The notes under the pieces were generated by a model that saw only the letters and a program-made list of their open reading frames with translations, was not told where the DNA came from and made no database searches. From contig NZ_JACWMW010000002.1 of the NCBI RefSeq assembly GCF_014773275.1, positions 372,001 to 436,000 on the forward strand: a DNA stretch of 64,000 nt, in the 5' to 3' direction. The stretch is from Mucilaginibacter rigui. GTDB taxonomy: Bacteria; Bacteroidota; Bacteroidia; Sphingobacteriales; Sphingobacteriaceae. Below, piece after piece: positions 43,898 to 64,000 of the stretch. Position 1 is the stretch's first letter, and the number at the start of each line of letters is the position of its first letter. The translations under genes and the position numbers were made by a program.

Positions 43898-43971
43898 GGA
43901 GTGGTAGTTCAGCTGGTTAGAATGCCTGCCTGTCACGCAGGAGGTCGCGGGTTCGAGTCCCGTCCATTCCG
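43898..43971 (+). tRNA. tRNA-Asp(GTC)
   Basis: The acceptor stem GGAGTGG pairs with CCATTCC (one G-U), the anticodon arm CCTGC-CTGTCAC-GCAGG carries GTC, and the T arm is GCGGGTTCGAGTCCCGT. CCA is not encoded. It is the boundary between core genes and the integrase-bearing island; its 3' end is the probable attachment site. Confidence 0.95.
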
Positions 43972-43975
43972 CTAA
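43951..43975. other. candidate attB/attL core at the 3' end of tRNA-Asp
   Basis: The integrase gene starts 250 bp downstream of this tRNA and faces away from it. Integrases of this kind target the T-arm and 3' end of tRNA genes and rebuild the gene on insertion. The matching right-hand copy would lie beyond the window, so the exact core is not shown. Confidence 0.5.
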
Positions 43976-44028: not shown

Positions 44029-44223
44029 TTATGCCAAAAGCGCTCGTTTCAGACTAAGTTTTATGATTCTCCCGGTTACCTATTCGGTTACCTGTTTGAA
44101 TCACCTAATTTAGGTAACCGAATATAGATTTAATTAATTGATTTTGAATGAATTAACCCGATGTCGAATGGCATTAAAACGATTCAAATTTTATTAAATC
44201 TTTTATCAAAAAATTGGTTACTT

Positions 44224-45450
44224 ATGAAGAATTCTAACAGCTTTTCGATCCTGATCTGGGCGAACAAAGCAAAATCAGATGTTAATGGCCTTATGCCCCT
44301 ATACGCAAGAGTGACTGTTATGGGCAAAAGGGCGGAGATCTCGCTAAAAAAGAAAGTTAATCCTGCTAAATGGGATGCCAAGACCGGCTATATGAAAGGA
44401 AACGGAAACGAAGTCCGTACGGTCAACAATCATATTCACCAGGTCTCCGAAGAGATCTTCCAGATCTACAGTGAATTGCAGAAGAACAGCGAATACATAT
44501 CCGCCGAGGAAATAAAAAATAAATACACAGGCGTACCCGCTGAGCGTCGGTCACTGCTTCTGGTATTTGACGAACACAATAACGATATTCAGAAACTGGT
44601 CGGCAAGGACTATGTCAAAGCTACGCTGACAAAGTACAAGACCATTCGAAGCAAGGTTGCCGAGTACATTCTCCAAAAATACGGCAAGTCTGATATCTAT
44701 CTCGACACACTTGAATATAGCTTCGTGACGGGGTTTGAAAAGTATCTGAAGATCGAAGCAGGTATCGACCATAATACGACTATGGCTTATATCAAGCGAC
44801 TTAAAAGGATAATCTCTTTGGCGGTACACAACAACTGGATAGCTTACAACCCTTTCTCAGCCTTCAAATGTACTACGCGCAAAGTAACACGTGAAGAATT
44901 GAATCCGGACGAGCTTGAAACGCTTACCAATAAGCAATTCGCTATCAAGCGACTCGAAGAAGTGCGTGATTGTTTTCTATTCAGCTGCTATACGGGTTAT
45001 GCTTTTGTTGACGCCTCTAAATTAACCGCCGCTAACATCGTCATTGGGAATGACGGGGAAATGTGGATGAGAACCAACCGGACAAAGACAGACATAGCCG
45101 CCAATGTACCGTTGCTGCCGCGGGCTATAGCTATTATCAACAAATACAAAGAGCACGATGAATGTATGATCAGTGGCCGCATCCTGCCGATGAAAAGCAA
45201 TCAAAAAATGAATGCGTACCTAAAAGAAATAGCAGACTTGTGCGGCATTAAGAAAAATCTTACGACACACATGGCAAGGCACACGTTCGCGACGACCGTA
45301 ACCCTGGGCAATGGTGTTCCGATAGAATCTGTCAGCAAGATGCTCGGCCACACTAAAATCACGACTACACAGATATACGCAAGGGTCAGGGAGCAAAAGC
45401 TAAGTGCCGATATGAGACAACTTAGAAATAAGCTGAATTGTAATGCTTAG
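44224..45450 (+). CDS. int: site-specific tyrosine recombinase (integrase) of the island
   Basis: A 408-residue integrase of the Bacteroidota mobile-element type. It has an N-terminal arm-binding domain, a SAM-like core-binding domain (about 95-195) and a C-terminal catalytic domain. Catalytic residues are the Arg of the EVRDCFLFSCYTGY region, the H-x-x-R of HMARHTFAT, the histidine of LGHTKI and the Tyr of TQIYARV. ATG 44224 is chosen since the upstream 21 residues resemble no family member; a start at 44161 is possible. It lies directly behind tRNA-Asp and marks the island's left end. Confidence 0.9.
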   Translation: MKNSNSFSILIWANKAKSDVNGLMPLYARVTVMGKRAEISLKKKVNPAKWDAKTGYMKGNGNEVRTVNNHIHQVSEEIFQIYSELQKNSEYISAEEIKNKYTGVPAERRSLLLVFDEHNNDIQKLVGKDYVKATLTKYKTIRSKVAEYILQKYGKSDIYLDTLEYSFVTGFEKYLKIEAGIDHNTTMAYIKRLKRIISLAVHNNWIAYNPFSAFKCTTRKVTREELNPDELETLTNKQFAIKRLEEVRDCFLFSCYTGYAFVDASKLTAANIVIGNDGEMWMRTNRTKTDIAANVPLLPRAIAIINKYKEHDECMISGRILPMKSNQKMNAYLKEIADLCGIKKNLTTHMARHTFATTVTLGNGVPIESVSKMLGHTKITTTQIYARVREQKLSADMRQLRNKLNCNA

Positions 45451-45517: not shown

Positions 45518-45558
45518 TTTAATGCAGTAATATGATCTTTGTGCAAAAAGAAAGTAAA

Positions 45559-45822
45559 ATGGCATTAGAGATCATAACAAAATCCGACTTAGAGGAATTT
45601 CGACTGAGGCTGTTAGAAGATATCAGGTCGATCGTAGGCAACCACAAACCAGAGACCGGTAAACTCCTTAAGAGCTACCAGGTCAAAAATCTACTTAAGA
45701 TATCGCCCGGAACGCTTCAGAATCTGAGAATGAACGGCACTTTACCGTTCTCAAAAATTGGCGGCATCATCTACTACAAGTACGATGACATCGCCAAAAT
45801 CCTTGACGCCAAATCTAAATGA
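45559..45822 (+). CDS. excisionase-like helix-turn-helix protein
   Basis: An 87-residue protein from ATG 45559 (a 9-residue longer frame exists). After a helical N-terminus it carries a MerR/HTH_17-type winged helix, LKSYQVKNLLKISPGTLQNLRMNGTLPFSKIGGIIYYKYDDIAKIL, the form used by Bacteroidota element excisionases and regulators. Its position right after the integrase supports a directionality factor. It is convergent with the Cas12f-like gene and the guide-RNA candidate between them. Confidence 0.8.
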   Translation: MALEIITKSDLEEFRLRLLEDIRSIVGNHKPETGKLLKSYQVKNLLKISPGTLQNLRMNGTLPFSKIGGIIYYKYDDIAKILDAKSK

Positions 45823-45864: not shown

Positions 45865-45980
45865 AGCTTATTTTTACACGATAAGCGAGCCGTTGTATAT
45901 ACAGATGTGATCTCAGGTTCAATCCATATTCAGTGAGGCAACAAGGCCACACCCTACGGCTGTACAAGCAGCCTCATATT
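45865..45980 (-). ncRNA. putative guide RNA of the Cas12f-like/sigma system
   Basis: In the 168 bp after the Cas12f-like stop, the minus strand shows two neat hairpins: GGCTG-CTTGTA-CAGCC (45973-45958) and GTGTGGC-CTTGTT-GCCTCAC (45952-45933, one mismatch). A single-stranded ATGGATTGAACC (45927-45916) follows; its ATTGAAC end resembles 3' ends of type V and other CRISPR repeats. The next about 29 bases (45915-45887) would be the guide, and a small hairpin GCTTAT...ATAAGC with TTTCT (45886-45862) could end the transcript. The layout copies the ORF-then-guide order of TnpB/Cas12f loci. RNA and exact boundaries are predictions. Confidence 0.55.
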
Positions 45981-45990
45981 TTATTGACAG

Positions 45991-47082
45991 CTATTCCACG
46001 ATCAGGTCGATACCGACCTTCGCTGCTTTGAATGCTATCATTTCTTTCAGCCCTGCAAAGTTCCAGTTCCTTAAGAGGAAAGGTTCAGCCATAGCGATCT
46101 CTTCCTTTTCCTGCTGCCCGGTCAATATCAGGGTCGCTGCCCGGTGCTGCAAGCAGAAATCAATCAACCGCTTGCTGTATACATTCAGCTTGTGTTTGAT
46201 GTAGTCCTTCTCTAAAGATTGATAATGGGCTAAGGGCTTACGTTTACGAACTTTGCCATGACCCGCCTTGTTCCCGTCGACCGATGCCTGCACCCGGCTA
46301 CGGGCGGCCTGTATCGCCATCCTCCGATGTAGAAACTCCTCCTTGCTGCCAATGGTCATTCTTGCTTTGCCGACCTTAACGGTAAGCGGATATTCCAATG
46401 AAAGGGATGCCTCGGCAATAATGGCCCCGCCTAAGAGATGAAACTGTTTTTCCTGTTCGAATGTGGCCAGCAAAAAGACCTTCTTCTGCTCCACTTTCAG
46501 AAAGCTGGATGCCAGCTTTATCTTACCGTTGACAACCTGCCGGAGCAGTTCCCGTTTCTCATCATAGCCCCTGCCGAGGTAAGTTCTGAAAGGGATGCCG
46601 AATAGGATAAAAGTAAAGTTTCCGTGATCGCCCGCTGTCAGCCGCCTGATATTCTCCGCACTGAAGGGCATGGCAATGGAACGTTTGAAATTCCTGATCG
46701 ACCGCTCCCCGTTGACATAAAGCCCTCTTTCTTTTAAAAAGGTGGAGACCAGCTGGCTGTTCAGGTTATTGTAGATACTGCTTGGGAGTACACCCTTGAA
46801 TTTTTCTGTAAGGACTTTGTAAGTAGAATTGGTACGGGATGATACCAGCATACCGTCAGCATCCTTATGATGGTCGCTGATCTTCAGTTTAACACCATCT
46901 GCGAGGTAGACCATCTCAGCGATCTGTTCCTGGAGGAACTGGTGGGTATAGATCAGGTTAGCGCATTTATAACAGGCCTGCTGCCATTGCATTAGCTTGC
47001 CAATAGCGTCGTATACGACATCCTTATCGGGGCTGTTCACTATGATCTGGATCTTCCGGGTAATATACATGTTGTCCGCCAT
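45991..47082 (-). CDS. Cas12f/TnpB-like protein, predicted nuclease-dead
   Basis: A 363-residue protein. The middle and C-terminal parts follow the Cas12f order: a beta-barrel-like segment (FILFGIPFRTYLG...VVNGKIKLASSFLKVEQKKVFLLATFE), a basic AGHGKVRKRKPLAHYQSLE bridge-helix region, then YIKHKLNVYSKRLIDFCLQHRAATLIL and NWNFAGLKEMIAFKAAKVGIDLIVE, which match RuvC-region blocks of Cas12f. The RuvC-I Asp is absent (GGAIIAEASL in place of GxDxG), the RuvC-II Glu is absent (LILTGQ in place of VxMEnL), and the protein stops before the zinc finger and RuvC-III. It should bind guide RNA and DNA without cutting. ATG 47082 follows the sigma stop by one base (a GTG at 47091 is the alternative), so the two are coupled. 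Confidence 0.8.
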   Translation of the reverse strand: MADNMYITRKIQIIVNSPDKDVVYDAIGKLMQWQQACYKCANLIYTHQFLQEQIAEMVYLADGVKLKISDHHKDADGMLVSSRTNSTYKVLTEKFKGVLPSSIYNNLNSQLVSTFLKERGLYVNGERSIRNFKRSIAMPFSAENIRRLTAGDHGNFTFILFGIPFRTYLGRGYDEKRELLRQVVNGKIKLASSFLKVEQKKVFLLATFEQEKQFHLLGGAIIAEASLSLEYPLTVKVGKARMTIGSKEEFLHRRMAIQAARSRVQASVDGNKAGHGKVRKRKPLAHYQSLEKDYIKHKLNVYSKRLIDFCLQHRAATLILTGQQEKEEIAMAEPFLLRNWNFAGLKEMIAFKAAKVGIDLIVE

Positions 47083-47083
47083 T

Positions 47084-47932
47084 TCAAGCACTTAAAAGTC
47101 CGTACCGCCCGGAGATGCCCTTATTGGCCCGACCAGCCGGTTTGCCATTTTTCTTTTTCAGACAGGCTGCTATCTTCCATGCCTTGAGATATTCCGTTTG
47201 GACGAATGCGAGGGGTAACTGTAAGAAGGAAGCGATCTGTTCAAAATCATACCTGCCGGTCAGCCTTAGATGGTAGATCTTATTCTGCTCTTCGTTCAAG
47301 CCCTCGATATGGTTAAAACTATCCACAAAGCCGGGGGCCGGGCTTAGTTGTATATCATGTACAGGCGTTTTAACCGTGACCAATATGGTCTTTAATCGAA
47401 CCGTTCCCTTTTCGATGATCACGGTCACGGTACGAATGGAAAGGTGATACCGTTCGGCTATCTGTGAATGGCTAAGCCCTTTGATAAAATGAAGTTCCAT
47501 GACCTCTTTCTCCCTTCCATAGCAAACCTTATCAATAGCTTCCTTAACTTCATTCAGGCGGCTTTCATTCAGGGCTTCGGTATGATCGTTATAAGTCTGA
47601 ACATCCGGGTGCTCTCCAAAAAGATCAGCAGGGTTATCGTAATCATTCAACCTGATCATATTACGGTGAAACCTGCTGTCTGAATTCCGAAAGTAGGAGT
47701 AACATGCCCATTTAACCGACTGCATTAAAAAACGCCGGGCATGCTCATCGCTGGTTATCGTCTGCCTGAAGTTCCAAAGTTTCAGAAAGGCGTCTTGAAC
47801 TATATTTTCTACTATATAACTGTCATTAAGCATTCGTTTGCCGAATGAATAAATTGTTAGGCGATATTGCTTGAGTATTTTCTCAAATACCTTATCGTCA
47901 AAACTGCTTATCTCACACAACTTACCTACCAT
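47084..47932 (-). CDS. ECF-type RNA polymerase sigma factor linked to the Cas12f-like protein
   Basis: A 282-residue sigma-70-family protein, longer than usual ECF factors (about 180). Region 2 spans roughly 12-85 (SYIVENIVQDAFLKLWNFR; FLMQSVKWACYSYFRN) and region 4 about 128-185 (EKEVMELHFIKGLSHSQIAE and YHLSIRTVTVIIEKG). A second HTH-like segment at about 213-262 (NEEQNKIYHLRLTGRYDFEQ and IASFLQLPLAFVQTEYLKAW) looks like a degenerate repeat of region 4, and a basic tail follows. No anti-sigma factor or SusCD pair is beside it. Its stop and the next ATG are one base apart, so it is made with the Cas12f-like protein, which would steer it to DNA. Confidence 0.85.
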   Translation of the reverse strand: MVGKLCEISSFDDKVFEKILKQYRLTIYSFGKRMLNDSYIVENIVQDAFLKLWNFRQTITSDEHARRFLMQSVKWACYSYFRNSDSRFHRNMIRLNDYDNPADLFGEHPDVQTYNDHTEALNESRLNEVKEAIDKVCYGREKEVMELHFIKGLSHSQIAERYHLSIRTVTVIIEKGTVRLKTILVTVKTPVHDIQLSPAPGFVDSFNHIEGLNEEQNKIYHLRLTGRYDFEQIASFLQLPLAFVQTEYLKAWKIAACLKKKNGKPAGRANKGISGRYGLLSA

Positions 47933-48058: not shown

Positions 48059-48274
48059 ATGACAAATCTTGGGTTATTTCTGGCAAAGAAATCCGTTAAT
48101 AAAGCGGAAATTTCCCGTAAGACCGGTATTAGTAAGTCAAGACTTAGCGAATTGTCTATGAACAACAGCACAAAACTTCGAGCTGATGAACTTTACCTCA
48201 TTGCATTAGCGATAGATGTCGACCCCAAAGAGCTTTTGAATCACCTATTTATGGATCTTAAACTGAAAGACTAA
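48059..48274 (+). CDS. XRE-family helix-turn-helix regulator
   Basis: A 71-residue DNA-binding protein consisting almost only of a Cro/C1-type HTH: LGLFLAKKSVNKAEISRKTG, ISKSRLSELSMNNS, LRADELYLIALAIDVDPKELL. It is divergent from the sigma/Cas12f-like operon with two palindromes between them, so it is the natural repressor or switch of that operon. It has no sensor domain. Confidence 0.8.
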   Translation: MTNLGLFLAKKSVNKAEISRKTGISKSRLSELSMNNSTKLRADELYLIALAIDVDPKELLNHLFMDLKLKD

Positions 48275-48311: not shown

Positions 48312-49673
48312 TTACCTCCTGTTAGTCCTCGCTTGCTTTTGCCGGTGCCTGTTTCTTCCGTGTATCGCTTCATCATCGACATCATCAGTTATATCGATAC
48401 CCTGGTAATTATATAAATTACGATCAGCACGATCAGAAACATCACTACGATCATTATTTTCAGAACCGTCAAACTCTTTCCCTGTAAAACTGCTTTTTGC
48501 TCCAGTTTTGTTAAGCGATTCATGATCTCTGCGTTCTTGTCGCCCATCTCCCGTAGCAGCTTTGCGTTCGCTGTCGCGTTGGTCTGCATCAGGCCGAGAG
48601 TTTTTAGTAACATCTGTCGTTCTTCCTCCCATACTCTTGTCGCTTCCAGCTGGCCAGCTGTAGGTAAGTTCTCCGTACTTTGCTTTTGTGCCGCTGTTTG
48701 CAGCGCTAACAGCCTTGCCGTCTCTGTCTTGCTCATAATCGATATACTTAACTATCTCCGCCCATTTGAAGCGGTTTCCTAAAGATTGCCCTTTGATCTT
48801 AAAGTCGTTGATGAAATAGGTTATACCGCTTATTCTGCCAGTACTTGCCTGGTTGAATAAAAGGCTGACTTCGGCTTTATGACAACGCGCTATAAATTCA
48901 CTTAAATTCAGTTTCCTCTCGTAAATGATCGGATCAAGGATAGCCTGTAATAGTGCCTTGTCGGAGGGAAAGCCGGTCCTGATCGTCCGCTCGATCTCAT
49001 TCTTTCGCAATGAACGCTGCGATAGTTTGTTATTTCGGTCTGTTGGTCGCCGGCTATTCTGATAGGAAGATATTCGGTTATCCGGCAAGCTTGCTGCACT
49101 GTTATCTTGCTCATTTGCTCTGCCGTCATAAAGTTCCGCTGATATGCTGTTATCCCGATCGCTTGCTATATCGCCATTAAGCTGCATAGCTATATTGTTC
49201 GCCCGCCCTAATGGTATAAGGTTATATTGCTGCTCTAATCTTCGCAGCACTGATTGGCTCCTACGGTAGTTATTACTATCAGAAACTACCGTTCCATCTA
49301 ATCGGATACGGTTAACCAGCAGATGAATGTGCGGATGTTCAGCATCAAAGTGACGTATGACCAGGTGCTGGTTATCATCGTAACCCATGGACCGCATATA
49401 CTCTAATCCGATCTGCAAAAGCTTTTCATTACTCAGGTTGCCGGGGTATTCATCTTTCGAAAAATTGAGGCTGGTATGCCAGACGTACTTTGATAGAGCA
49501 GGGCGCAGGCTTCTGATCAGATCCACCTCTTTTTTGATGCTGCCGGCTGAAAGAGAAGAAAAAGTGCTTGCCAGTAATTCCGCCCTTTGGGCTTTATCGG
49601 GGTGATTCAGCTTTTTAAGGTTATAGGCCAAAGCGCCCATAAAGTTAGAGCCAAACTTTTCAACCGCGATCAT
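48312..49673 (-). CDS. relaxase / mobilization nuclease (MobB-type, MOBP)
   Basis: A 453-residue relaxase from ATG 49673 (MIAVEKFGSNFMGALAYNLKK). The metal-binding histidine motif is RHFDAEHPHIHLLVNRIRLDG (about 110-130), the third relaxase motif; the nucleophile tyrosine is likely in an N-terminal segment such as GALAYNL. The C-terminal third (from about 330) is hydrophilic, low-complexity and ends TNRR. It nicks DNA at oriT to start transfer. It overlaps MobC by 14 bp, and a second plausible gene lies inside its 3' part in another frame. Confidence 0.88.
   Translation of the reverse strand: MIAVEKFGSNFMGALAYNLKKLNHPDKAQRAELLASTFSSLSAGSIKKEVDLIRSLRPALSKYVWHTSLNFSKDEYPGNLSNEKLLQIGLEYMRSMGYDDNQHLVIRHFDAEHPHIHLLVNRIRLDGTVVSDSNNYRRSQSVLRRLEQQYNLIPLGRANNIAMQLNGDIASDRDNSISAELYDGRANEQDNSAASLPDNRISSYQNSRRPTDRNNKLSQRSLRKNEIERTIRTGFPSDKALLQAILDPIIYERKLNLSEFIARCHKAEVSLLFNQASTGRISGITYFINDFKIKGQSLGNRFKWAEIVKYIDYEQDRDGKAVSAANSGTKAKYGELTYSWPAGSDKSMGGRTTDVTKNSRPDADQRDSERKAATGDGRQERRDHESLNKTGAKSSFTGKEFDGSENNDRSDVSDRADRNLYNYQGIDITDDVDDEAIHGRNRHRQKQARTNRR
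48389..48736 (-). CDS. possible nested coiled-coil membrane-anchored protein overlapping the relaxase
   Basis: A 115-residue frame lying completely inside the relaxase coding sequence, same strand, other frame. Its product is unlike a random shadow: a helical, charged coiled coil with a heptad look (MLLKTLGLMQTNATANAKLL; NAEIMNRLTKLEQKAVLQGK) followed by one strong transmembrane helix (MIVVMFLIVLIVIYIITRV) at the C-terminus. The overlapped relaxase segment is low-complexity, as expected where one frame is relaxed. Many Bacteroidota mobilization loci carry small membrane proteins here. It may be a real overprinted gene or chance. Confidence 0.45.
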   Translation of the reverse strand: MSKTETARLLALQTAAQKQSTENLPTAGQLEATRVWEEERQMLLKTLGLMQTNATANAKLLREMGDKNAEIMNRLTKLEQKAVLQGKSLTVLKIMIVVMFLIVLIVIYIITRVSI

Positions 49674-50004
49674 CCAGTAAATGTCTAATGATTTCCTGTT
49701 GTTGCTTTTCAACCGCATCTAATACCGCCCGAAGGCTAATTGGCAGTCTCCCGGCATTAACCTGCTTGGTAAGCTGGTTAATGTTGACACCGATCCGGTT
49801 TAGTTCCGCATAAAGGTCAACGGTTACTTTCGGCAAAACGGTTTTCGGGTATTTACCGGTAAACAGCTTTTGCCGGATCATCACAGCCAGGTGCTGTCCG
49901 CACATGACACTCCAGTGCTCCAATTTTTGCAGCTCGCCTTCTGTCAACCGAAATACGACTGTCTTGGATAACTTATGTTCTCTATCTTTTTTCGGCCTTG
50001 CCAT
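49660..50004 (-). CDS. MobC-like relaxosome accessory protein (ribbon-helix-helix)
   Basis: A 114-residue protein with an N-terminal basic start (MARPKKDREHKLSKTVVFRL), an RHH-type DNA-binding segment, and a conserved helical part VTVDLYAELNRIGVNINQLTKQVNAG typical of the MobC relaxosome family. It binds the oriT region and helps the relaxase nick. It is first in the mob unit; the relaxase starts inside its last codons. Confidence 0.85.
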   Translation of the reverse strand: MARPKKDREHKLSKTVVFRLTEGELQKLEHWSVMCGQHLAVMIRQKLFTGKYPKTVLPKVTVDLYAELNRIGVNINQLTKQVNAGRLPISLRAVLDAVEKQQQEIIRHLLDDRG

Positions 50005-52484: not shown

Positions 52485-53624
52485 TTAATTTATTTTTTCC
52501 TGCCGAAACTCGAATGTCTGCAAAAGAAAGCTGCACGTAGCGCCTGCGATATTGACCGCCAGTTCTGCATGCCTTGCCGACGGTTTAATGTTCGTTATTT
52601 TTTTACCGTGAGCATCGCTGTGTTTGTTACGCAGCCCACTTAAACCGCCGACAATAGAGAAACATCCTGAAAGTATTTGTTTAAATATAGGTTCAGTATG
52701 GGTTTCAGGCGAAAGATTTAATTGCTTAGTGGTAAGTGTATAAAGTTTGATCAGATCAATACTATCATCAAACTCAACATGACTTGCATCTAAAATATAC
52801 TTACACACAGTTTCTGTTAAAGACCTTGCCGAAGTAATTGCAGCTTCCGGGTCGTCTTTCAAGCGATTAAGGGCCTTTTTCCAATCGTGACCTATAAAAG
52901 CCATGTCAATATTTTGATGTGGCTTGGTAAATATGGTATCATGAGCTACATTTAAAATATTCTGTGAGGCTTTCATTAAAGGCTCGAAAGTATCCGCTAT
53001 AAAGGCTTCGCGTAGACGGTAACCGCCTTGCCCTTTAATAAATTCCCAAAAACCCTGAATTTGTGGATTATTTACAATGTAATCCGGTACATATTCTTTT
53101 AGAGCGTGATGATTCAGAATATCCGCCCTTAATGGTGCGTAATGTGCATCATTGACTGGGCGGTTAATACCTCTAGTGATTACTAATGACTGAAAATAAG
53201 CAACCTTTTTTCCGTAATTATGCTCATTTTTTTGCCAGGCCATAGTGATCTTATCCAAATAAGTTTTTTCAAAGCCAATAGAACTCAGATCGCTGAGAAT
53301 ATCAGTAATACTTGGTACATAGTCAAGGATTGGTAGAGTATCTGTTAATAGTGCAGTGAACTTCTCCTGAAATTCAGGATGTGGCTTTTGGAAAATCTTA
53401 TTCAAAAAATGTCCAAGTATCTCTTCATTCGAATTACCTGCAATCAGCCATGCATACTGATCATTTGCCTTTTCTTTACGGGCATCATTAACTGCTTCTG
53501 CATAAACATCCGTTACCCCCAATGTATTCGTTATTCGATTGAAGTTAGCATTAGACATCATTCCATCGTATTCAATGGCAAGTAAATCTTGATACAAGGG
53601 ATTTAAAACGGCGATGATATCCAC
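52485..53624 (-). CDS. abortive-infection C-terminal domain (Abi_C) protein
   Basis: A 379-residue protein with a large helical N-terminal region of unknown role and a recognisable C-terminal Abi_C domain (about 265-375): DPEAAITSARSLTETVCKYIL, LTTKQLNLSP, then SIVGGLSGLRNKHSDAHGKK and HAELAVNIAGATCSFL. The RNKxSDAHG motif resembles the HEPN/Abi RxxxxH active centre of RNases. Proteins of this form abort phage infection by toxicity. It is convergent with the GHKL gene. Confidence 0.8.
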   Translation of the reverse strand: MDIIAVLNPLYQDLLAIEYDGMMSNANFNRITNTLGVTDVYAEAVNDARKEKANDQYAWLIAGNSNEEILGHFLNKIFQKPHPEFQEKFTALLTDTLPILDYVPSITDILSDLSSIGFEKTYLDKITMAWQKNEHNYGKKVAYFQSLVITRGINRPVNDAHYAPLRADILNHHALKEYVPDYIVNNPQIQGFWEFIKGQGGYRLREAFIADTFEPLMKASQNILNVAHDTIFTKPHQNIDMAFIGHDWKKALNRLKDDPEAAITSARSLTETVCKYILDASHVEFDDSIDLIKLYTLTTKQLNLSPETHTEPIFKQILSGCFSIVGGLSGLRNKHSDAHGKKITNIKPSARHAELAVNIAGATCSFLLQTFEFRQEKIN

Positions 53625-56327: not shown

Positions 56328-59276
56328 CTAAATATAAGAACCATTTTGCCTGAACAGGTCACGCATATCATCTTTAAGCAGTTTGTAAACCCAGTTTCTG
56401 ATCACGCAAAAATCATCAACTTTGCCTGTGTTGATTTTATCGATCGTTTTTATCTGATTGTGGTAGTCGCTACGCAAAATTTTATCTAGTGAAAACGCTT
56501 CCAGTGAGGATACATCTTCGAACGCCTTTTCCCATGGTACAGGTTCTTTATAGTAAAACTTTGATTGGCCTTCTTTTGACTTGCAGTAACCAAATGAGCC
56601 CCATTTCAGAATATCTAAATCTTTCATATAAAAGAAATAGTCATGCGGCATGGAACTGTAAAAAGAAAACCCGTCTTTAAATGTTGGAAACAGTTGTTCA
56701 ACAAAATCTTTGTAAGAAGATTCCAACGATCTAAAAAAACGCTCAATATAAAGACGCGCCTGTTCTGGACTATATTGATTATTTCTTATCTGCGCGACAT
56801 CTGTCATGCCCTTTTCGTCTTTAACTCTGATAACATCATTAATCGCGATATCCGGCAAAGGTAAGTGATGTGTCTCAATCTTCTCATATCCCTTTTCTTG
56901 CAAGATCGTCACAATCTTAGAAAGTTCTTCTAGAGGTGCGATATCACCTATGATATTTAATTTGGGTATATCAAGATTATTTTTCAAGGCTTGTTCGACC
57001 AAAGAAGTTACCATTTCATAAGGAACATTACTTTCGCGATAATGACGTATAGCTCTGAAACGGCGTATTCGGTTCTGCAAGTCGCTTAAATCTATCGGAT
57101 ATATTTGGTTGAACCGGGGTAAATAAAGATCTACCGGTTTTAGATCAAAGTAAAGGTCTTTGAGGTAATAATAAACGATCAGCGATACCTGCTCTAATAG
57201 CAATACCTCCGAGTTATAGACGCTTAGCCTACCTTTTTGAATAATGTCTTTTAATTTATCAAATACTTGTTTTCGAATAAGCTTATCCTGGTCAGGCTCC
57301 AGTAAAGAGATATGGCTACTGTAAACGCTCTCGACCCCGATCTTATATAACCGGCCTTCGAAGTAATTCCCTTCAAAGGCGTAGCGCAGATCTTCATAAA
57401 TGATCTTGCCTGGTAATTCAGGCGTTATCCGATAAAGAGCATAACCATCATTTTTGATGATATCATGCGGTAGTACGATCCCGATTTCACCTTTCGTCCC
57501 AGGCCTGAATAGCTGCTTAAATGTTCCGAAATTTTCATCAAGGTAGGCATTGTACGCTGTTACGTAATTAAGGGCTTTGTTCTTTTTAAATTCTCGGAAT
57601 ACGTGTTGATGGCTTTCTGAAGCGTTGCTGATGTAAAACGCAATTGCACTCTTTCCAATATAATTATGGTAAAAATCTCCTACGATGTTCGCAAACGCAG
57701 TGTCATCCAGACGATGCAATTTGTAGGTGTGAAAACTGATGATGTAATCCCGGATCTTTGAATAGTAAAAGGATATGTGGTAAGAATCTTCCTTACTATA
57801 TTTTGTCAATAAGTTTCTCGCAAACAGGTCGTCTGGTAAGCCTTTATCTAACGGAAAATTCAAAGCTTCCAGCAGTCGTTCTAATTCTACGCCATCGTCT
57901 TCAAACTCTTCGTGATTAGAGTATTTGAAATTCATTAATATCCTGCCGATCTCTGAAAGTATTCTAAGACCAGACTCAACACCTATACTGGTTTTTCCAA
58001 GAGATTGCTTTAAATAAGCATGAATCAGATGTTTGTCGTCAATTTCCGGTGGAACATCCTTATTACTGTAAACCTCGCTGAATATTCGTAGAAAAAAACC
58101 GTTTTTCAACTCCTTCAATAGCTGATCAGAGATATTTCCCTTGAAGCCAAACGCACTTTTATAAATCGGGATAATTTCTTTGAGTTCTTCATCGCTAAAA
58201 TCTTCCAATAGGTAACCCGGTCGATTATTCAACCGTGGCACCCTCGTTCTAAATTTTAATAATTCTTCATACAAATGAGTTAAATTACCATTGATTTCAA
58301 GCACGCTATTCCAGATACTATCCTTACAGCTCACACAAAGTTTGACGTAATCCAGGTTTTTGATGGCGAGCGCGATCTCGCTAAGTTCAATGGCCAAAGC
58401 TGAACTGATAGTTTCGTCTATGCCATCGATAAATATTAATATCTTTTTGCTAATAAATCGCCCCAATTCATCCAGCTTTTTTAATACCAGTTCACTTTCA
58501 CTTTTACTTGAAAAGACCCCGTTCAGATCATCGGCTATATGCTCCAATGGCGATTTGTTGATAATCGCAGCATTGTAAAAAAATACAAATTTGTCATCCA
58601 GGCACTGTAATGCAAGTGAACACATCGCGTTTGTTTTACCTACACCGGCACTACCCACAATCGCAAAGGCCGATGCTTCAGAATTGACAAATTCTGCGAA
58701 CACAGATCGCAGGTCATTTCTCGGAACGAAAAGCTCCCTAACAAATTTAGCGCTCGGTGAATCTAAATCGCCGACAATTGTCCCCATCCGCTCCTGCACT
58801 TGATTTCTGCAAAATGCTTGTAGGTTTTCATCAGAAAATGAGACAAAGTTTTTAAGTGCTTCGTATCTGATTCTTATATCAACGTCCGTTGCGAGTGTAC
58901 AACCATTCTTCCAGAATTCTGACGCATCAGAGATCTTTTTGCCGGTAAGGTCTTGTTTGGTGATCGTGTCAAAGATCTTTGTGATCTTGCCATTGGTAAC
59001 TATGGTAAAAGGCGCGATTTCATCAAGCGCCCTTGAATATGAAATACCCTGATCGACGTCATCCTGTGAAATGTTATGTTGGTCATTTTTTAATTCGATA
59101 ACAAATAGGTTCTTACCATGTCTTTTACACAGGATATCGGCCCTTCCTTTGATCATTTGGCGGAGTTTCCCCAGTCTGATCGTAAACGATCTCTCCAAGG
59201 ATATCTCGGAAACGTTGAACCCTAAATCATTTAAAAAAGGTAATAATATTTTTCCTCTGATTTCTTCTTCATTCAT
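56328..59276 (-). CDS. HsdR-type nuclease fused to a STAND/NACHT-like NTPase (probable NLR-like defence protein)
   Basis: A 982-residue protein. Residues 1-110 are a type I restriction HsdR_N/PD-(D/E)xK nuclease: D47 in GRADIL, E61 and K63 in IELKN, and the QxxxY motif at 76-80. A P-loop, VGSAGVGKTN, lies near 207-216 and Walker B ILIFIDGIDET near 280-290. A long leucine-rich helical C-terminal half follows. This nuclease-NTPase-sensor order is that of Avs/NLR-like antiphage proteins. It ends 28 bp from the convergent HExxH gene. Confidence 0.75.
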   Translation of the reverse strand: MNEEEIRGKILLPFLNDLGFNVSEISLERSFTIRLGKLRQMIKGRADILCKRHGKNLFVIELKNDQHNISQDDVDQGISYSRALDEIAPFTIVTNGKITKIFDTITKQDLTGKKISDASEFWKNGCTLATDVDIRIRYEALKNFVSFSDENLQAFCRNQVQERMGTIVGDLDSPSAKFVRELFVPRNDLRSVFAEFVNSEASAFAIVGSAGVGKTNAMCSLALQCLDDKFVFFYNAAIINKSPLEHIADDLNGVFSSKSESELVLKKLDELGRFISKKILIFIDGIDETISSALAIELSEIALAIKNLDYVKLCVSCKDSIWNSVLEINGNLTHLYEELLKFRTRVPRLNNRPGYLLEDFSDEELKEIIPIYKSAFGFKGNISDQLLKELKNGFFLRIFSEVYSNKDVPPEIDDKHLIHAYLKQSLGKTSIGVESGLRILSEIGRILMNFKYSNHEEFEDDGVELERLLEALNFPLDKGLPDDLFARNLLTKYSKEDSYHISFYYSKIRDYIISFHTYKLHRLDDTAFANIVGDFYHNYIGKSAIAFYISNASESHQHVFREFKKNKALNYVTAYNAYLDENFGTFKQLFRPGTKGEIGIVLPHDIIKNDGYALYRITPELPGKIIYEDLRYAFEGNYFEGRLYKIGVESVYSSHISLLEPDQDKLIRKQVFDKLKDIIQKGRLSVYNSEVLLLEQVSLIVYYYLKDLYFDLKPVDLYLPRFNQIYPIDLSDLQNRIRRFRAIRHYRESNVPYEMVTSLVEQALKNNLDIPKLNIIGDIAPLEELSKIVTILQEKGYEKIETHHLPLPDIAINDVIRVKDEKGMTDVAQIRNNQYSPEQARLYIERFFRSLESSYKDFVEQLFPTFKDGFSFYSSMPHDYFFYMKDLDILKWGSFGYCKSKEGQSKFYYKEPVPWEKAFEDVSSLEAFSLDKILRSDYHNQIKTIDKINTGKVDDFCVIRNWVYKLLKDDMRDLFRQNGSYI

Positions 59277-59318
59277 TTAGTTAATCGGTTTACTTAGGAT
59301 TTAAACTGATGGACCAAT

Positions 59319-60392
59319 CTATTCTTCGGGCGGACGTTGAAAAACGAGTGCCTTGTTCTCTAGTAAAGCTTTAAAATATGCTGTTCCTTGGAGGCATAGT
59401 TCGCCGACTGTTGCAGGGCTAACTTCTGCGAAATAACGGGCAGCAGTCGTGAATTCTGAATCTTCAACACAAAAAAGTTCAAACGCTTCGCCCGTAGAGA
59501 TACGGAAAAATAAGTAGTGGCCAAGCGCCCACGAGGTGTCAGGTCCCCTGTGATTCAAATGAAGTGTATTGTATTGATAAGCTGCCTCACTTTCACCTTC
59601 CAGACCAGTCTCCCAGCTTTCCATATCGTCCCAAAACCCACTACCCCCTAAATAATCATAATTATTGCGGTACTGGTCAAATAATGCAATGGCTGTAGTA
59701 CCGGCCAACTCTCTAAGCCTTGCGTAAAATGGCTTCATTACTTTTGGATCGAAGTCCCCGTAGTAATCGTTGCGGTCTACTAGATATTTATATTGGCTGT
59801 AAAGTCCGGTAAATAAGAACCCCAGATCATTAAGCGTTAAACGGCTCGGATCAAGATGCTGCGACAATGCATATAGCAAATCATAACTGATCGCGATTCG
59901 ATATTCGCTGTTATGTCTGCGCGCATCCAAATATAACTGCTCATAACGATTTGCCGCAAAATGTTGCTCAATCAATGCCGGGAAACGAAGCAGCAGATTT
60001 TTCAGCTCCTGTCCCTCGATGACTTGGATACGATAATGCTTTTGTGCGCTTATTTGCTCTAACCATATACGGGCATTATTTGTCAAGTAGGAAGAAATAA
60101 GAATTACTAAACAAGCTGGCTGCTCCGCATCGGCCCAGGCGATTTTGGCGTTAAGCTGTTCCGGGGGAACACCTGCTGTGTAATGTTTGCATTCGAAAAA
60201 CCAACGGCAATCCTCCCGGCTTAGCGGTGTCTCCACAGTCCAAATGCCTTCGATATCCCTACCATTGTCTGCGCCGCCCTGTCGCCAGATTAGCTGGCGG
60301 AACCCTAGTTTTAATAACAACTCAAAGCATAACCGCTCGAATTCAGTAGGGCTAAGTTGTTCGAAACGGATATCGTCAGCGGCGTAGAGCAT
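59319..60392 (-). CDS. Mrr-like restriction endonuclease domain protein
   Basis: A 357-residue protein whose first 150 residues fit the Mrr/restriction endonuclease fold: FERLCFELLLKLGF, the catalytic Asp in GGADNGRDIEG, and E-x-K in WFFECKHYTAG (about 66-76). The second half has no recognised domain (YLDARRHNSEYRIAISYDLL onward, many aromatic residues) and may sense or regulate. It lies 42 bp from the STAND gene and 82 bp from the helicase gene on the same strand, and could be a stand-alone modification-dependent nuclease. Confidence 0.75.
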   Translation of the reverse strand: MLYAADDIRFEQLSPTEFERLCFELLLKLGFRQLIWRQGGADNGRDIEGIWTVETPLSREDCRWFFECKHYTAGVPPEQLNAKIAWADAEQPACLVILISSYLTNNARIWLEQISAQKHYRIQVIEGQELKNLLLRFPALIEQHFAANRYEQLYLDARRHNSEYRIAISYDLLYALSQHLDPSRLTLNDLGFLFTGLYSQYKYLVDRNDYYGDFDPKVMKPFYARLRELAGTTAIALFDQYRNNYDYLGGSGFWDDMESWETGLEGESEAAYQYNTLHLNHRGPDTSWALGHYLFFRISTGEAFELFCVEDSEFTTAARYFAEVSPATVGELCLQGTAYFKALLENKALVFQRPPEE

Positions 60393-60474: not shown

Positions 60475-63400
60475 TTATAACTCACGCAAGACATACAAAA
60501 AATAAGCTGGGTAAAGGCTTATGGCCTGTTGGACGGCCTCATTTTCAGCCCGGATAGCTTCCCGCAGCCTATATCGCTGGATAGGGAAGTCCGGGAATTT
60601 TAGGGCGAGCTCCTGCGCCAGCACCCGGTCAGCGAAACCTTGTTCGTAAAACGCGATCGCCAAGGCGGTCGGCAAACCATACTTCAGCTGTTTCTGTAAT
60701 AACTGCAGGTGAGCAATTAACTGCTCTTGGTCATCATTCCCCCTCAATAAGAGTAACTCCGTGACCGCGTTCACGATGAGCGTACTGTCAAATCCGAATG
60801 CGCCTTCGACGATATCGATCACCGTTTCCAGCTTGACTTGGCCGCGCCGGGACCCTTGCGCGAGGTAGGCCTGGCTGTTAAATAAGGCCGTCAACAGCTG
60901 GTGATAAGGCTGACCACTGATCCACATTCTGGCCAAGCCTTGCCGGAGTGCTACAGGAGTTAATTTATTGAGGTTATTATGCGTCAAATGACCGGCTAAT
61001 AAGGGCCAAAGTAGGACCAGTAATTCTTCCGGCGTATCCGTTTCCAGTAATCCAGCTTCATGTACCTCCAGCCAAGCCTCTATCTGCAGGAGCTCACTCA
61101 CGCCCAGTAAGGTCCGGCCGTAACGGGCTTTTTGATTTGCCGCGGGCAGGTCGGTACGGATGCGGCCAGCAAGCAATTCGAAGACCGCCACCAGTTCTTC
61201 CTGTTGCTCCTTATCCATGAGCTGGTAGGCAAGCGTGGATGCCGCCAGGGCTGCCACTCCTTCTTCGTCGGCTTCGATATCATTACTGGCCCAATGGGCC
61301 AGCAGGTAGCTTTCGATGGCCGACAGGATCGCAAGCCGGTGAGCGATCTGCCGGGCGGTATTCTCCAGGGTAAAGGCCACATTAACGCGGCGCTGAACGA
61401 CCTCTGCCACAAAAGCGTTCACCTCGGCCGCACCGGCGATATAGGCAGCCACGAGTGCCGGCACATCGATCGGGCGTTCAAAGTTCCCCGTAGCGCTTTT
61501 GACCGGATCGAAGAGCGTCAGGATGGTGCTCGAGCAGGGTTCCGAACGGCGTGGATCAAGTAGGCCCTTGGCGAGTCCCCAATTATAGTTGTCATGATGA
61601 TAGGTTTTATCATCATAGATCTCCGGGTCGGTGAACAGGATCGTGCCCTCGGTATAGATGCCGGCACGGCCGGCACGCCCAATCAGGTTATGAAAGTCCC
61701 GGGTCTTGATCCTTTCCTGCGCCTGGTAAAAACCGGTCACTAATAAGTATTTGAGAGGCAGGTTTACGCCCTGGGCCAGGGTGGACGTGCAGATCAGGAA
61801 GCGGATATGGCCCTGCTGCATGGCATATTCAATCGCTAAGCGAACACCCTGGGGTGTAAAGCCGCTATGCGCGAACACACCGATCTCACAGTTGCGGGTC
61901 AGCGCATGGGTGGCGCCGAAATGCCGTTCATGCAGCAGGTTCAGCCGGGTGAGTTCGGCAGCGTCGGCTAAAGCCGATGGCCAGTTTTGGGTATAGTTCC
62001 GGACGCGCAGGTCATCGATCAGTTCATTGGTGGTGCTGACGACCGCTTTGGTCCCACAAAAGATGGCGACTGCGCCGTTCTTGACCAGCTTGAGGCCAAG
62101 ATAAACCGCTACCGCACGGCCATTGCCTGCCTCGGGGAACACCCGGTCCCGCAACTCCCGGGGTTTGCGCTGGAGGGTTTCCCGCCGCAGGACGCGCGGC
62201 ACGAAAAAGTCGTCGGTATCCGGGTCATCCGGCAATACGTATTCGATCCTCCCCTGGGCCGTATTCCAGCTGGTAAAGCCCACAGTACGGTAAGTAGGCA
62301 ACAGGTCGCCGCCGTTCACGATAACTCGTTCGGGTCCGATCAGCCAGTCGCCGATCTCTTCGGCATTGCGAATTACAGCCGAAATAAGCACGATTTGGGT
62401 CTCCGAGGCAATGACCGAACGCAAGGAAGATAGCAGCAGTTCATAAGTGACTCCGCGAATGCCGCTGTCGAACTGGTGGCCTTCATCATAGATGAGCAAT
62501 CCGACAAGAGCCGCAAGCTCCCGTAACTGGCGCAGCATGTAAAGTAATTTCTCAGGGGTAAGCACCAAAACTAAGCGTTGCTGGCCGCCGGCCAGGCCCT
62601 CTTCCAGTTCGATGTCTGCTTGGAACGCGTCTGATGGTGCGTCAATACGAATATCTTCGTCCCGAAAGGCGTGGTGAAGCGTCTGTTTGATCTCATTACA
62701 AAGCGCCTTGAATGGCGCCACAATCACGGTGAGCGGTTGCTCTGAGATCAGAAGGTGTGCGCGGATGATCAGCTCAATGGAACGGGTCTTGCCAGCACTG
62801 GTCGGCATTTGCACTACCGCAGAATTGCCGCTGTACACGCCCATTTCACCCAGGAGAGCCTGTGCGGGCCAGAGTTCACGGATGAAGCCTTTTTTAATAA
62901 TAGCATTGCGCCAATCGTTCTTACCGGTGCCAGTGTACCGGGGTAACAGCCGCCAGCTGGCCTGGCGGAAGCGCCGCTTGAGTACGCTCATGGCAGTATC
63001 GATAAGTAACAGTTCGCGGTCCGAGCCGTGCTGATAGACTTGCCGGCGCAAAGCTTTCATTAAGCGCAAACAGGTCTTGCGTCCTTGGCCGTTTCTGAAA
63101 TAGCGCCGGTACGCCTTGCGGATGCGCCGGAGCTGTTGGCGGTAATCCTGGGACATTGGCGGCATTTTTTTAAAAGGGTCTTTGAGGAAGCCGAACAGTA
63201 AATATTCCAGGCCACTGCCGCCAAGATCGGGGAAATCGCCGATTTGCTGGACCAATACACTGGAACTGCCGGGCAGATCGGCCAAATAATAAGCGGCGGC
63301 GCATAAGAGCAATAGGTAGTTGCCGGGTGTCTGGGTGAGTCGCGACTGCAAAAAAGCATCAAAGAATTGTGCAGAGAAGAGCACATTCTTTTTCTCTTCC

Positions 63401-63597
63401 GAAGGTAGTGGCCTTTTCCCGTTTGAACGATTATTGAGATCGCCGAGGATGCCAATCGTGATCAGTAACAATTCTTCCGGGTGCTGGGGAATGTTGTTAA
63501 AGTCCTGCTCAGCGACCTCATATTCGTACATTTTGGCGCGGGCTCGGGTCACTCCGAGCAAACGCACCGAATTTGCTTCAGGCTTCATCGGCAGCAA
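60475..63597 (-). CDS. superfamily 2 helicase, HamB-like (Hachiman-type defence)
   Basis: A 1040-residue SF2 helicase. Motif I is VQMPTSAGKTRSIELI (about 262-277), motif II is the DEGH box in LIYDEGHQFDSGIRG, motif III is LISAVIRNAEE, and motif VI is NLIGRAGRAGIYTEG (about 635-650). Long helical flanks on both sides are as expected of HamB. It overlaps the upstream DUF1837-like gene by 20 bp, which fits the HamA-HamB operon of Hachiman, where the helicase senses damaged DNA and frees the HamA nuclease. Confidence 0.8.
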   Translation of the reverse strand: MLPMKPEANSVRLLGVTRARAKMYEYEVAEQDFNNIPQHPEELLLITIGILGDLNNRSNGKRPLPSEEKKNVLFSAQFFDAFLQSRLTQTPGNYLLLLCAAAYYLADLPGSSSVLVQQIGDFPDLGGSGLEYLLFGFLKDPFKKMPPMSQDYRQQLRRIRKAYRRYFRNGQGRKTCLRLMKALRRQVYQHGSDRELLLIDTAMSVLKRRFRQASWRLLPRYTGTGKNDWRNAIIKKGFIRELWPAQALLGEMGVYSGNSAVVQMPTSAGKTRSIELIIRAHLLISEQPLTVIVAPFKALCNEIKQTLHHAFRDEDIRIDAPSDAFQADIELEEGLAGGQQRLVLVLTPEKLLYMLRQLRELAALVGLLIYDEGHQFDSGIRGVTYELLLSSLRSVIASETQIVLISAVIRNAEEIGDWLIGPERVIVNGGDLLPTYRTVGFTSWNTAQGRIEYVLPDDPDTDDFFVPRVLRRETLQRKPRELRDRVFPEAGNGRAVAVYLGLKLVKNGAVAIFCGTKAVVSTTNELIDDLRVRNYTQNWPSALADAAELTRLNLLHERHFGATHALTRNCEIGVFAHSGFTPQGVRLAIEYAMQQGHIRFLICTSTLAQGVNLPLKYLLVTGFYQAQERIKTRDFHNLIGRAGRAGIYTEGTILFTDPEIYDDKTYHHDNYNWGLAKGLLDPRRSEPCSSTILTLFDPVKSATGNFERPIDVPALVAAYIAGAAEVNAFVAEVVQRRVNVAFTLENTARQIAHRLAILSAIESYLLAHWASNDIEADEEGVAALAASTLAYQLMDKEQQEELVAVFELLAGRIRTDLPAANQKARYGRTLLGVSELLQIEAWLEVHEAGLLETDTPEELLVLLWPLLAGHLTHNNLNKLTPVALRQGLARMWISGQPYHQLLTALFNSQAYLAQGSRRGQVKLETVIDIVEGAFGFDSTLIVNAVTELLLLRGNDDQEQLIAHLQLLQKQLKYGLPTALAIAFYEQGFADRVLAQELALKFPDFPIQRYRLREAIRAENEAVQQAISLYPAYFLYVLREL

Positions 63598-64000
63598 TTT
63601 CGTATAAATGGTGTACTAGATCCATAAGGTCATCGCCCTTGATAAGGATCAGGAAAAGGTTTTGCTGATGCGGGTGGACGGAAGTATCAGCATCCGTGAT
63701 GGCTGTTGGGCCATAAGCGGCGTTTGTAAATAACGCGGCGGCACCGAAATTGCTCTGGTAAGGTTTGCCCGCCTTGTCCTGAAACCGCTCAACTAGCGCA
63801 CACTGATCTTTTTCGCCTTTATCATACAAGCGTTGTTTCATCGCATTCAGGGATTCAGCCAAGCGTAAGGGATCAGATACCGACCCGTCGATCGCATCCT
63901 GTAGCCGCGCTTTAGGCGCAGTGCCGGAGAACTGGGCCTTGGCTTCGATTACGGTCAAAATATCCTGCGGGGTCTGGTGCTCGTCATACAAGAGAAAGCC
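63578..64000 (-). CDS. HamA-like (DUF1837) nuclease, partial, 5' end outside window
   Basis: The C-terminal about 140 residues of a protein entering from the right edge; the first full codons read GFLLYDEHQTPQDILTVIEAK with no true start in the window. The E-A-K in VIEAKAQFSG is consistent with the PD-(D/E)xK active site of HamA, and the end FLILIKGDDLMDLVHHLYEI fits the C-terminal strand and helix of DUF1837. Its stop overlaps the HamB-like start by 20 bp. The diagnosis rests mainly on this operon with the helicase. Confidence 0.65.
   Translation of the reverse strand, partial: GFLLYDEHQTPQDILTVIEAKAQFSGTAPKARLQDAIDGSVSDPLRLAESLNAMKQRLYDKGEKDQCALVERFQDKAGKPYQSNFGAAALFTNAAYGPTAITDADTSVHPHQQNLFLILIKGDDLMDLVHHLYEIAADEA

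What the first reader, a model, noticed from the sequence alone, without database searches (positions are those of the whole stretch)
45865..47932. Nuclease-dead Cas12f-like protein in an operon with an ECF sigma factor: likely RNA-guided transcription system
Seen: sigma stop and Cas12f-like ATG are one base apart; the Cas12f-like protein keeps the nucleic-acid binding blocks and the WNF...FKA...GI signature but has lost the RuvC-I Asp, the RuvC-II Glu, and everything after the RuvC-II region. No tnpA, no cas1/cas2, no CRISPR array is near. Known: coupled dCas12f and sigma-E pairs in Bacteroidota have recently been described as RNA-guided activators. Inference: this is such a system, here carried on an integrated mobile island with its own XRE switch, which suggests the island uses it to rewire host gene expression.
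Basis: partly seen in the sequence, partly recalled or inferred. Interest (0 to 1): 0.95.

Follow-up and report, generated by a model that had tools for sequence, protein, structure and literature searches.

The report
RNA-guided sigma factor on defence island
A mobile DNA island in a Mucilaginibacter-type bacterium carries a Cas12f-like protein without its cutting residues, a paired sigma factor and a predicted guide-RNA gene, the two proteins matching a solved RNA-guided complex, and the guide likely switches on nutrient-uptake genes elsewhere in the chromosome by binding a conserved foldable control element in front of them.

Summary
The 363-aa protein is a full-length homologue of the solved nuclease-dead Cas12f of Flagellimonas taeanensis (PDB 9n9c/9n9m; E 1e-107), ends at the same place, and lacks the RuvC-I Asp, the RuvC-II Glu segment and everything after. 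The 282-aa protein matches the RpoE of the same entries (9n9q). So it is a new member of a known kind. Added here: (1) a covarying guide-RNA gene directly downstream (scaffold 45892-45975, guide 45876-45891, minus strand), which the finding does not mention; (2) the carrier is a 26.3-kb mobilizable island at tRNA-Asp with 14-bp end repeats and defence genes; (3) a likely target class: about half of the guides extracted from such systems match the switching strand of a conserved bistable hairpin element, mostly behind a G. The element often lies beside XRE genes and in front of SusC/SusD operons and, in 25 of 80 dCas12f loci (three more weakly), in front of the sigma gene itself. This genome has one copy, outside the island, before a redoxin-SusC-SusD operon; the window's guide matches 11 of its first 12 bases there, 12 of 16 overall. 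The element also occurs in many genomes without dCas12f. Binding and activation are inferred, not tested.

The parts
47084..47932 (-). ECF sigma factor gene (282 aa) with C-terminal extension
   Evidence: Sigma70_r2/r4; phmmer to PDB 9n9q_C RpoE 2.2e-23 over residues 13-255
45991..47082 (-). dCas12f gene (363 aa), nuclease-dead, ends in the RuvC-II region
   Evidence: PDB 9n9c 1.2e-107; Foldseek 9n9m/9n9c first; 755 proteins at E <= 0.001, the window's own included
45892..45975 (-). predicted guide-RNA scaffold, 84 nt, ending ATACAAC, 15 nt after the dCas12f stop
   Evidence: Alignment A4 of 36 scaffolds; 95.3% of cells paired, 0/500 shuffles
45876..45891 (-). predicted guide (16 nt) following the scaffold
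   Evidence: Similar in Mucilaginibacter loci; target matches
48059..48274 (+). XRE (HTH_26) gene divergent from the sigma gene
   Evidence: PF13443 9.8e-10
45532..45822 (+). HTH_17 gene (excisionase-like, recalled label)
   Evidence: PF12728 1.7e-8
44161..45450 (+). tyrosine integrase of the island
   Evidence: PF00589, PF13102, PF17293
43898..43972 (+). tRNA-Asp(gtc); its last 14 bases 43959-43972 are the left end repeat, repeated at G000:C7:442266-442279
48312..49718 (-). relaxase (MobB-like)
   Evidence: PF03432 1.6e-31; NF041325 3.5e-29, below its cut-off
49660..50004 (-). MobC-like mobilization protein
   Evidence: PF05713 3.8e-8
52485..53624 (-). AbiJ-like defence gene (island cargo)
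   Evidence: PADLOC AbiJ 5.7e-22; PF14355 Abi_C 6e-22
56328..60392 (-). HSDR_N (weak STAND/NACHT) protein and Mrr-type endonuclease genes (island cargo)
   Evidence: PF13588 8.3e-11, PF04471 7.6e-14
60475..63991 (-). Hachiman HamB and HamA (HamA continues past the window)
   Evidence: PADLOC HamB 1203.6 bits, HamA 143.5 bits; HamA ORF to 64396 in the chromosome

Best explanation
This is a member of the dCas12f-sigmaE family, in which a Cas12f-like protein without nuclease residues and its partner sigma factor likely use a guide RNA to place RNA polymerase at a chosen DNA site. The predicted guide RNA gene starts 15 nt after dcas12f and is probably cut from, or read with, the same transcript. 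The guide would bind a conserved bistable hairpin element behind a 5'-G. In this genome that element lies about 540 kb away, outside the island, in front of a small ORF, a redoxin-domain (TlpA-like) gene, SusC and SusD, with two XRE genes and a Druantia-like defence system on its other side. Transcription would then start downstream of the R-loop and run into the SusC-SusD operon. Shown: the proteins, the gene order, the covarying gRNA scaffold, the island end repeats, the element and the guide matches. Inferred: RNA binding, DNA binding, polymerase recruitment, the exact target, and activation as the outcome.
For: Full-length match to the solved dCas12f of F. taeanensis, whose genome copy is identical over 355 of 355 residues compared, and of the sigma factor to RpoE of the same entries. 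Sigma gene within 1.5 kb upstream, same strand, in 79 of 80 loci. gRNA scaffold start found by regular expression in 72 of 80 loci plus the window, start and end in 57 of 80 plus the window; covariation 39 both-side cells versus 11.0 shuffled, 0/500, and 5 both-side pairs versus 3.7, 15/500. Element: 97.9% of cells paired, 17 of 36 pairs changed on both sides, 0/500. Guides against 26 elements from genomes without a dCas12f hit: 31 of 58 guides (16 of 38 distinct) within 3 of 16 mismatches, against 1 of 58 reversed and 40 of 1160 shuffled. Guides against the element of the same locus: 15 of 28 within 4 of 16, all 15 on the same strand with G before, against 1 of 28 with the element reversed and 26 of 560 shuffled. 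Own genome: one element, guide 11 of first 12 identical behind G. SusC downstream within 4.4 kb in 10 of 11 contexts counted in dCas12f genomes, own included.
Against: No experiment. The window guide has 4 mismatches in 16 to the own-genome element without a gap (1 in 12). The 12-base search that found it gave 16 places at up to one mismatch against 10 for the reversed pattern, and the 18-base search found no second site below 3 mismatches. 13 of 28 loci with an element before sigma have no guide matching it within 4, F. taeanensis included; 27 of 58 guides match no tested element within 3. Of the three other genus genomes with dCas12f, G035 has no element at E <= 0.001 and G034 only a diverged one without a good match by eye. 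The element is in 38 of 100 genomes searched, dCas12f in 4 of the same 100, 3 of them among the 38, so it has a function of its own. Guides and elements are related sequences, so the counts are not independent events.
Confidence: 0.75

Rival explanations
1. The pair is a genuine RNA-guided activator, but its real target is not the chromosomal element: the guide is aimed at copies of the element on incoming or resident mobile DNA, so it senses or exploits other elements.
For: The element also lies, by eye, beside relaxase/MobC-like genes (L126), transposase/resolvase-like genes (L218) and plasmid-like genes (L222, L223); the match in the own genome is imperfect.
Against: 10 of 11 contexts counted in dCas12f genomes and 9 of 16 in relatives lie before SusC; 25 of 80 dCas12f loci keep a clear element 50-167 bp before sigma.
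Confidence: 0.13
2. dCas12f works as a repressor like TldR, blocking transcription at the element, and the sigma factor acts apart from it.
For: The element is a plausible leader or operator and the bound site could block read-through; TldRs are nuclease-dead TnpB relatives that repress (PMC13418256, passages read).
Against: Sigma linkage in 79 of 80 loci and a RpoE chain of matching sequence in entry 9n9q, which also holds the dCas12f; that TldRs have no sigma partner is recalled.
Confidence: 0.05
3. The guide acts on RNA: it pairs with the 5' or 3' arm of the element's transcript and switches the fold, and the G in front is a coincidence of a conserved element.
For: The guide has the sequence of the shared middle strand, which pairs with either arm.
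Against: Guides of two groups are shifted by 4-5 nt along the element and both begin right after a G, as expected for a DNA-side rule; the family is solved with DNA (title of 9n9m).
Confidence: 0.04
4. A decayed Cas12f/TnpB remnant beside an ordinary ECF sigma gene, without function.
For: Databases label some relatives as transposase or IS200/IS605 element.
Against: 755 proteins at E <= 0.001 (the best 120 were seen), same end and 81 invariant columns among 18 sequences, conserved gRNA and sigma linkage.
Confidence: 0.01

Closest known systems
dCas12f-sigmaE (RpoE) system of Flagellimonas (Allomuricauda) taeanensis, PDB 9n9c, 9n9m, 9n9o, 9n9q
   Same: Same gene order, same truncated dCas12f, homologous sigma with C-terminal extension, same gRNA scaffold type directly downstream.
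   Different: dCas12f 47% identical; different guide; the window copy sits on a mobilizable defence island and has no hairpin element before sigma, whereas F. taeanensis has one 136 bp before sigma, though its guide does not match it.
Cas12f nucleases (e.g. Al3Cas12f 9nzo/9nzr, AsCas12f)
   Same: Same fold, homologous over residues 82-360.
   Different: 9nzo keeps the RuvC-I Asp and continues past residue 363's position; the window protein does not.
TldR (TnpB-like nuclease-dead repressors)
   Same: Nuclease-dead RNA-guided transcription factor on a mobile element (PMC13418256, abstract and passages).
   Different: TnpB-derived and repressing; no sigma partner (recalled).
IS200/IS605 TnpB
   Same: Distant homology (NF040570).
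   Different: No TnpA among the proteins scanned, no nuclease site.

Membership tests
dCas12f-sigmaE RNA-guided activators | Full-length homology to the solved dCas12f | tested here: met
   9n9c 1.2e-107, residues 7-362; fold
dCas12f-sigmaE RNA-guided activators | RuvC catalytic residues and C-terminal part lost | tested here: met
   Alignment to 9nzo; shared end
dCas12f-sigmaE RNA-guided activators | Adjacent ECF sigma homologous to the RpoE of 9n9q, C-terminal extension included | tested here: met
   2.2e-23, residues 13-255
dCas12f-sigmaE RNA-guided activators | Guide-RNA gene of the family's scaffold type | tested here: met
   the window's fold shows the stems, but its energy alone is not unusual (z 0.63)
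dCas12f-sigmaE RNA-guided activators | 5'-G target-adjacent motif (recalled from a 2025 preprint, not held) | tested here: met
   On the DNA only: G before the own-genome site and before 15 of 15 sigma-side matches, 26 of 31, 25 of 32
dCas12f-sigmaE RNA-guided activators | Guide matches a site in the own genome before SusCD (recalled as typical) | tested here: inconclusive
   11 of 12 first bases, 12 of 16 overall
dCas12f-sigmaE RNA-guided activators | gRNA-dependent recruitment of polymerase and promoter-independent start | not testable with these tools
   needs RIP/ChIP/RNA-seq
Active CRISPR-Cas12f | Intact RuvC site | tested here: not met
Active CRISPR-Cas12f | CRISPR array and cas1/cas2 nearby | tested here: not met
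   No regular array in 43600-64000; no cas1/cas2 among 16 window proteins scanned
TldR | Nuclease-dead, TnpB-derived, acts as repressor without sigma | tested here: not met
   Closest to dCas12f and sigma-linked; repression itself not tested

The most novel reading that the evidence does not exclude
Natural dCas12f-sigmaE guides of many Bacteroidota converge on one conserved bistable element: they copy its switching strand, the strand that can pair either with a 5' arm or with a 3' arm. Bound there, the sigma-polymerase would start inside or beyond the element, so the transcript lacks the switching strand and skips a fold-based attenuator that otherwise governs SusC-SusD operons at the edges of defence islands, and in many genomes the sigma-dcas12f operon itself (self-activation). 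The window shows this activator riding a mobilizable defence island and aiming at a chromosomal copy of the element in its host.
Probability: 0.3. Interest if true: 0.85.

Novelty: new member of a known kind. Interest (0 to 1): 0.62.

Why it matters
What natural dCas12f-sigmaE systems regulate, and why, is to my knowledge open. The guide-to-element link gives a specific, widespread and directly testable answer: a structured control element shared by SusCD operons and by the activator's own operon in many genomes, next to XRE regulators and at least sometimes to defence genes. It also shows RNA-guided gene activation placed on a mobilizable defence island.

Tried and rejected
Searching the window guide in its own genome over 18 bases gave itself and five 3-mismatch sites (read, not pursued; 3 sites for the reversed pattern). 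A degenerate 16-base pattern with 3 mismatches gave counts near those of the reversed control and was not used. Self-targets of guides within the 80 loci and the window at one mismatch gave L045 as the one convincing case, plus four repeat-like matches in L021, L049 (two) and L084. Rfam has no family for the element or the gRNA in the eight loci scanned (one sub-threshold miRNA hit in L045); the own-genome element was not among them; the window scan of 40000-64000 gave the tRNA and one sub-threshold plastid hit. The window holds no element (E up to 1). An intrinsic terminator at the element's 3' arm is suggested by the T run after CCACGCC in many flavobacterial copies, but the own-genome copy has no clean T run, so 'attenuator' stays a hypothesis. 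Integron attC, transposon end or replication origin as the identity of the element were considered from memory and not tested. Covariance model R1 rests on the RNAalifold structure of A3, which is the alternative (3' arm) fold; its detection leans on sequence. No tRNA-derived repeat of 15 or more exact bases was found (one search gave only a 14-base chance-like inverted match left of the tRNA); the 14-bp end repeat came from a mismatch-tolerant search.

Rows left out of counts: of 51 element matches, 30 were saved as loci; 3 from dCas12f genomes and one at a contig end were left out. Of 13 target regions fetched, L131-L133 were not counted for SusC because the contig ends near the element. The 16 relative contexts were picked by me (strong and some weak matches); L220, L222 and L223 are from dCas12f genomes. 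Of 52 extracted scaffolds of up to 120 nt, 36 were aligned. One row (L044) was a guide copy and was dropped. Guides were cut out by regular expression; at least one (L044) is taken at a wrong place.

Papers: the descriptions of the known family were not found in the held library (searches; two recalled DOIs not held); statements about them are recalled. Of PMC13418256 I saw passages.

Full report
Observation. The sigma CDS (282 aa) ends in TGA at 47084-47086 and the dCas12f ATG is at 47080-47082, one base apart. The interval given also contains a guide-RNA gene that the finding does not mention.

The Cas12f-like protein. Pfam has no significant family; NCBIfam gives guided_TnpB at 2e-6, below its cut-off. 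phmmer against PDB sequences gives 9n9c_A 'Nuclease-deactivated Cas12f' at 1.2e-107, residues 7-362 of 363 against 8-364 of 365, then Cas12f effectors (9nzo 4.4e-34). The 9n9c chain is identical over 355 of 355 residues to the dCas12f of Allomuricauda (Flagellimonas) taeanensis in locus L068. An AlphaFold2 model from 18 sequences (mean pLDDT 75.8, pTM 0.58, residues 58-81 poor) finds 9n9m 'dCas12f-gRNA-DNA complex (partial R-Loop)' and 9n9c first by Foldseek. In the 9nzo alignment the RuvC-I Asp column holds Ser, the Glu-bearing segment of RuvC-II is a gap, and RuvC-III is absent. The window protein and 17 homologues aligned with it stop at the same place, with 81 invariant columns; 755 proteins reach E <= 0.001, the window's own included, the best 120 listed.

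The sigma factor. It matches the RpoE chain of 9n9q at 2.2e-23 over residues 13-255, beyond sigma regions 2 and 4. Among 80 loci returned from the genome collection (317 confirmed, 80 kept), 79 have a homologous sigma ORF starting within 1.5 kb upstream on the same strand; L036 does not. One metagenomic protein (P0109, 554 aa) has sigma region 4 and dCas12f in one chain.

The guide RNA. Directly after dcas12f, 72 of 80 loci and the window show the scaffold start GAGGnTGCTTGTACAnCC or a close form; 57 of 80 and the window also show the end ATACAAC within range. In the window the scaffold is 45892-45975 (-), 15 nt after the stop codon, and the guide begins at 45891. On 36 aligned scaffolds two stems hold in 95.3% of cells with 39 both-side changes (shuffled mean 11.0, 0 of 500 as high); pairs with a both-side change are 5 against 3.7 (15 of 500). 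The window's own fold shows these stems and a third, though its energy alone is not unusual (z 0.63). Several loci carry two or more such units in tandem (L014, L026, L057, L066; seen).

From guide to target. Guides of many flavobacterial loci are nearly the same across genera, (G)CGTGGGCTCTCTTAT. Searching that core in ten of their genomes gave guide copies, some unrelated places and sites inside a long conserved hairpin. Twenty such elements, the own-genome one included, were aligned; the extended hairpin has 97.9% of cells paired, 17 of 36 pairs changed on both sides and 75 such cells (shuffled mean 20.0; 0 of 500). A second fold, in which the same middle strand pairs with a 3' arm, also holds but with less variation: 98.7% paired (shuffled 96.4), 4 of 15 pairs and 7 cells changed on both sides (0 of 500). 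The two folds exclude each other, and the guides copy the shared middle strand. Rfam lists nothing for it in the eight loci scanned.

Independent checks. The first elements were found by a guide pattern, which is circular, so a covariance model (R1) was used to find more. Of 100 genomes searched, own included, it hits 38 (51 matches); dCas12f is in 4 of the same 100, and 3 of those 4 are among the 38. Against 26 elements from genomes without a dCas12f hit, 31 of 58 guides lie within 3 of 16 mismatches (1 of 58 reversed guides, 40 of 1160 shuffled); of the 31, 30 are on the same strand and 26 have G in front. By distinct guide it is 16 of 38 against 1 of 38. R1 also finds the element in 28 of 80 dCas12f loci: 25 clear ones (E up to 3.3e-8) end 50-167 bp before the sigma ORF; three are weak (L020, L047, L014), two of them 655 bp away. 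In 15 of the 28 a guide of the same locus matches it within 4 of 16 (1 of 28 against the reversed element, 26 of 560 against shuffled ones; several candidate guides per locus in all three), all 15 on the same strand and behind G. The other 13, F. taeanensis among them, have no such match.

This genome. R1 finds exactly one element, G000:C7:957554-957692 (-), none in the window. Behind a G its middle strand reads GGCTCACTTATC against the guide GGCTCGCTTATC: 11 of 12, the odd pair a possible G-U wobble; over 16 bases there are 4 mismatches without a gap. In G036, a relative with dCas12f, guide and element agree in 14 of 16. The match is therefore good at the start but not perfect, and G034 and G035 do not show it. 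On one side of the element lie two XRE genes and then a Druantia-like system (DruE 1945 bits, DruD 341 bits, a third gene unmatched); on the other a 99-aa ORF, a redoxin-domain (TlpA-like) protein, SusC and SusD, with DUF6520 (just below cut-off) and MauE genes beyond SusD on the other strand. SusC lies downstream on the same strand within 4.4 kb in 10 of 11 contexts counted from dCas12f genomes including this one, and in 9 of 16 contexts picked in relatives; the rest lie by other, partly mobile or defence-like, genes.

The island. tRNA-Asp 43898-43972, integrase, HTH_17, relaxase and MobC sit together; the last 14 bases of the tRNA recur at C7:442266-442279, 26.3 kb on, with a succinate-dehydrogenase-like gene cluster some 6 kb further (judged by eye from translations). 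Cargo inside the window includes AbiJ-like, HSDR_N, Mrr and Hachiman HamB/HamA genes. The element is some 515 kb outside these ends.

Mechanism. By homology to the solved complex the gRNA-loaded dCas12f would bind the element and the sigma factor would bring polymerase, starting transcription downstream. I recall from a 2025 preprint, which I could not read here, a minimal 5'-G motif, start sites set by distance (about 46 bp) and SusCD targets. If that distance holds, the start would fall after the middle strand and before the 3' arm, so the transcript could form neither fold. That bypass is the boldest reading and is untested.

Verdict. A sound member of a known, recently solved kind, with a guide RNA, island ends and a likely target class added here.

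Noticed in passing
P0109 (metagenomic protein): A 554-aa chain joins a sigma region 4 part to a complete dCas12f: a possible natural fusion of the pair, or a frameshift product.
   Followed up: no
L014:9100-9350, L026:9086-9400, L057:9100-9360, L066:9100-9340: Tandem gRNA units with different guides behind one dcas12f, i.e. possible multi-target systems.
   Followed up: partly
L010 and L013, downstream of dcas12f: Short repeated stretches (GACAATTTGAAAGGTATATACAAC-like) with differing inserts, resembling a minimal repeat-spacer array.
   Followed up: no
G000:C7:957554-957692 and 37 of 99 other genomes searched: The bistable hairpin element is widespread without dCas12f, often with XRE on one side and SusC/SusD on the other; its own function is unknown.
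   Followed up: partly
L180, L211, L122, L124, L128, L130: Variable defence-type genes (Druantia DruE/DruD by PADLOC in L180; CBASS-like, Sir2/HerA-like, restriction and Vsr-like by eye in the others) lie on the XRE side of the element.
   Followed up: partly
window 50383-52407: 674-aa protein on the island with weak HATPase matches and no PADLOC match; function unknown.
   Followed up: no
L217, 71-aa XRE before the element: This XRE resembles by eye the window's XRE at 48059-48274, which suggests that the window's XRE comes from the same XRE-element module although the element is absent there.
   Followed up: no
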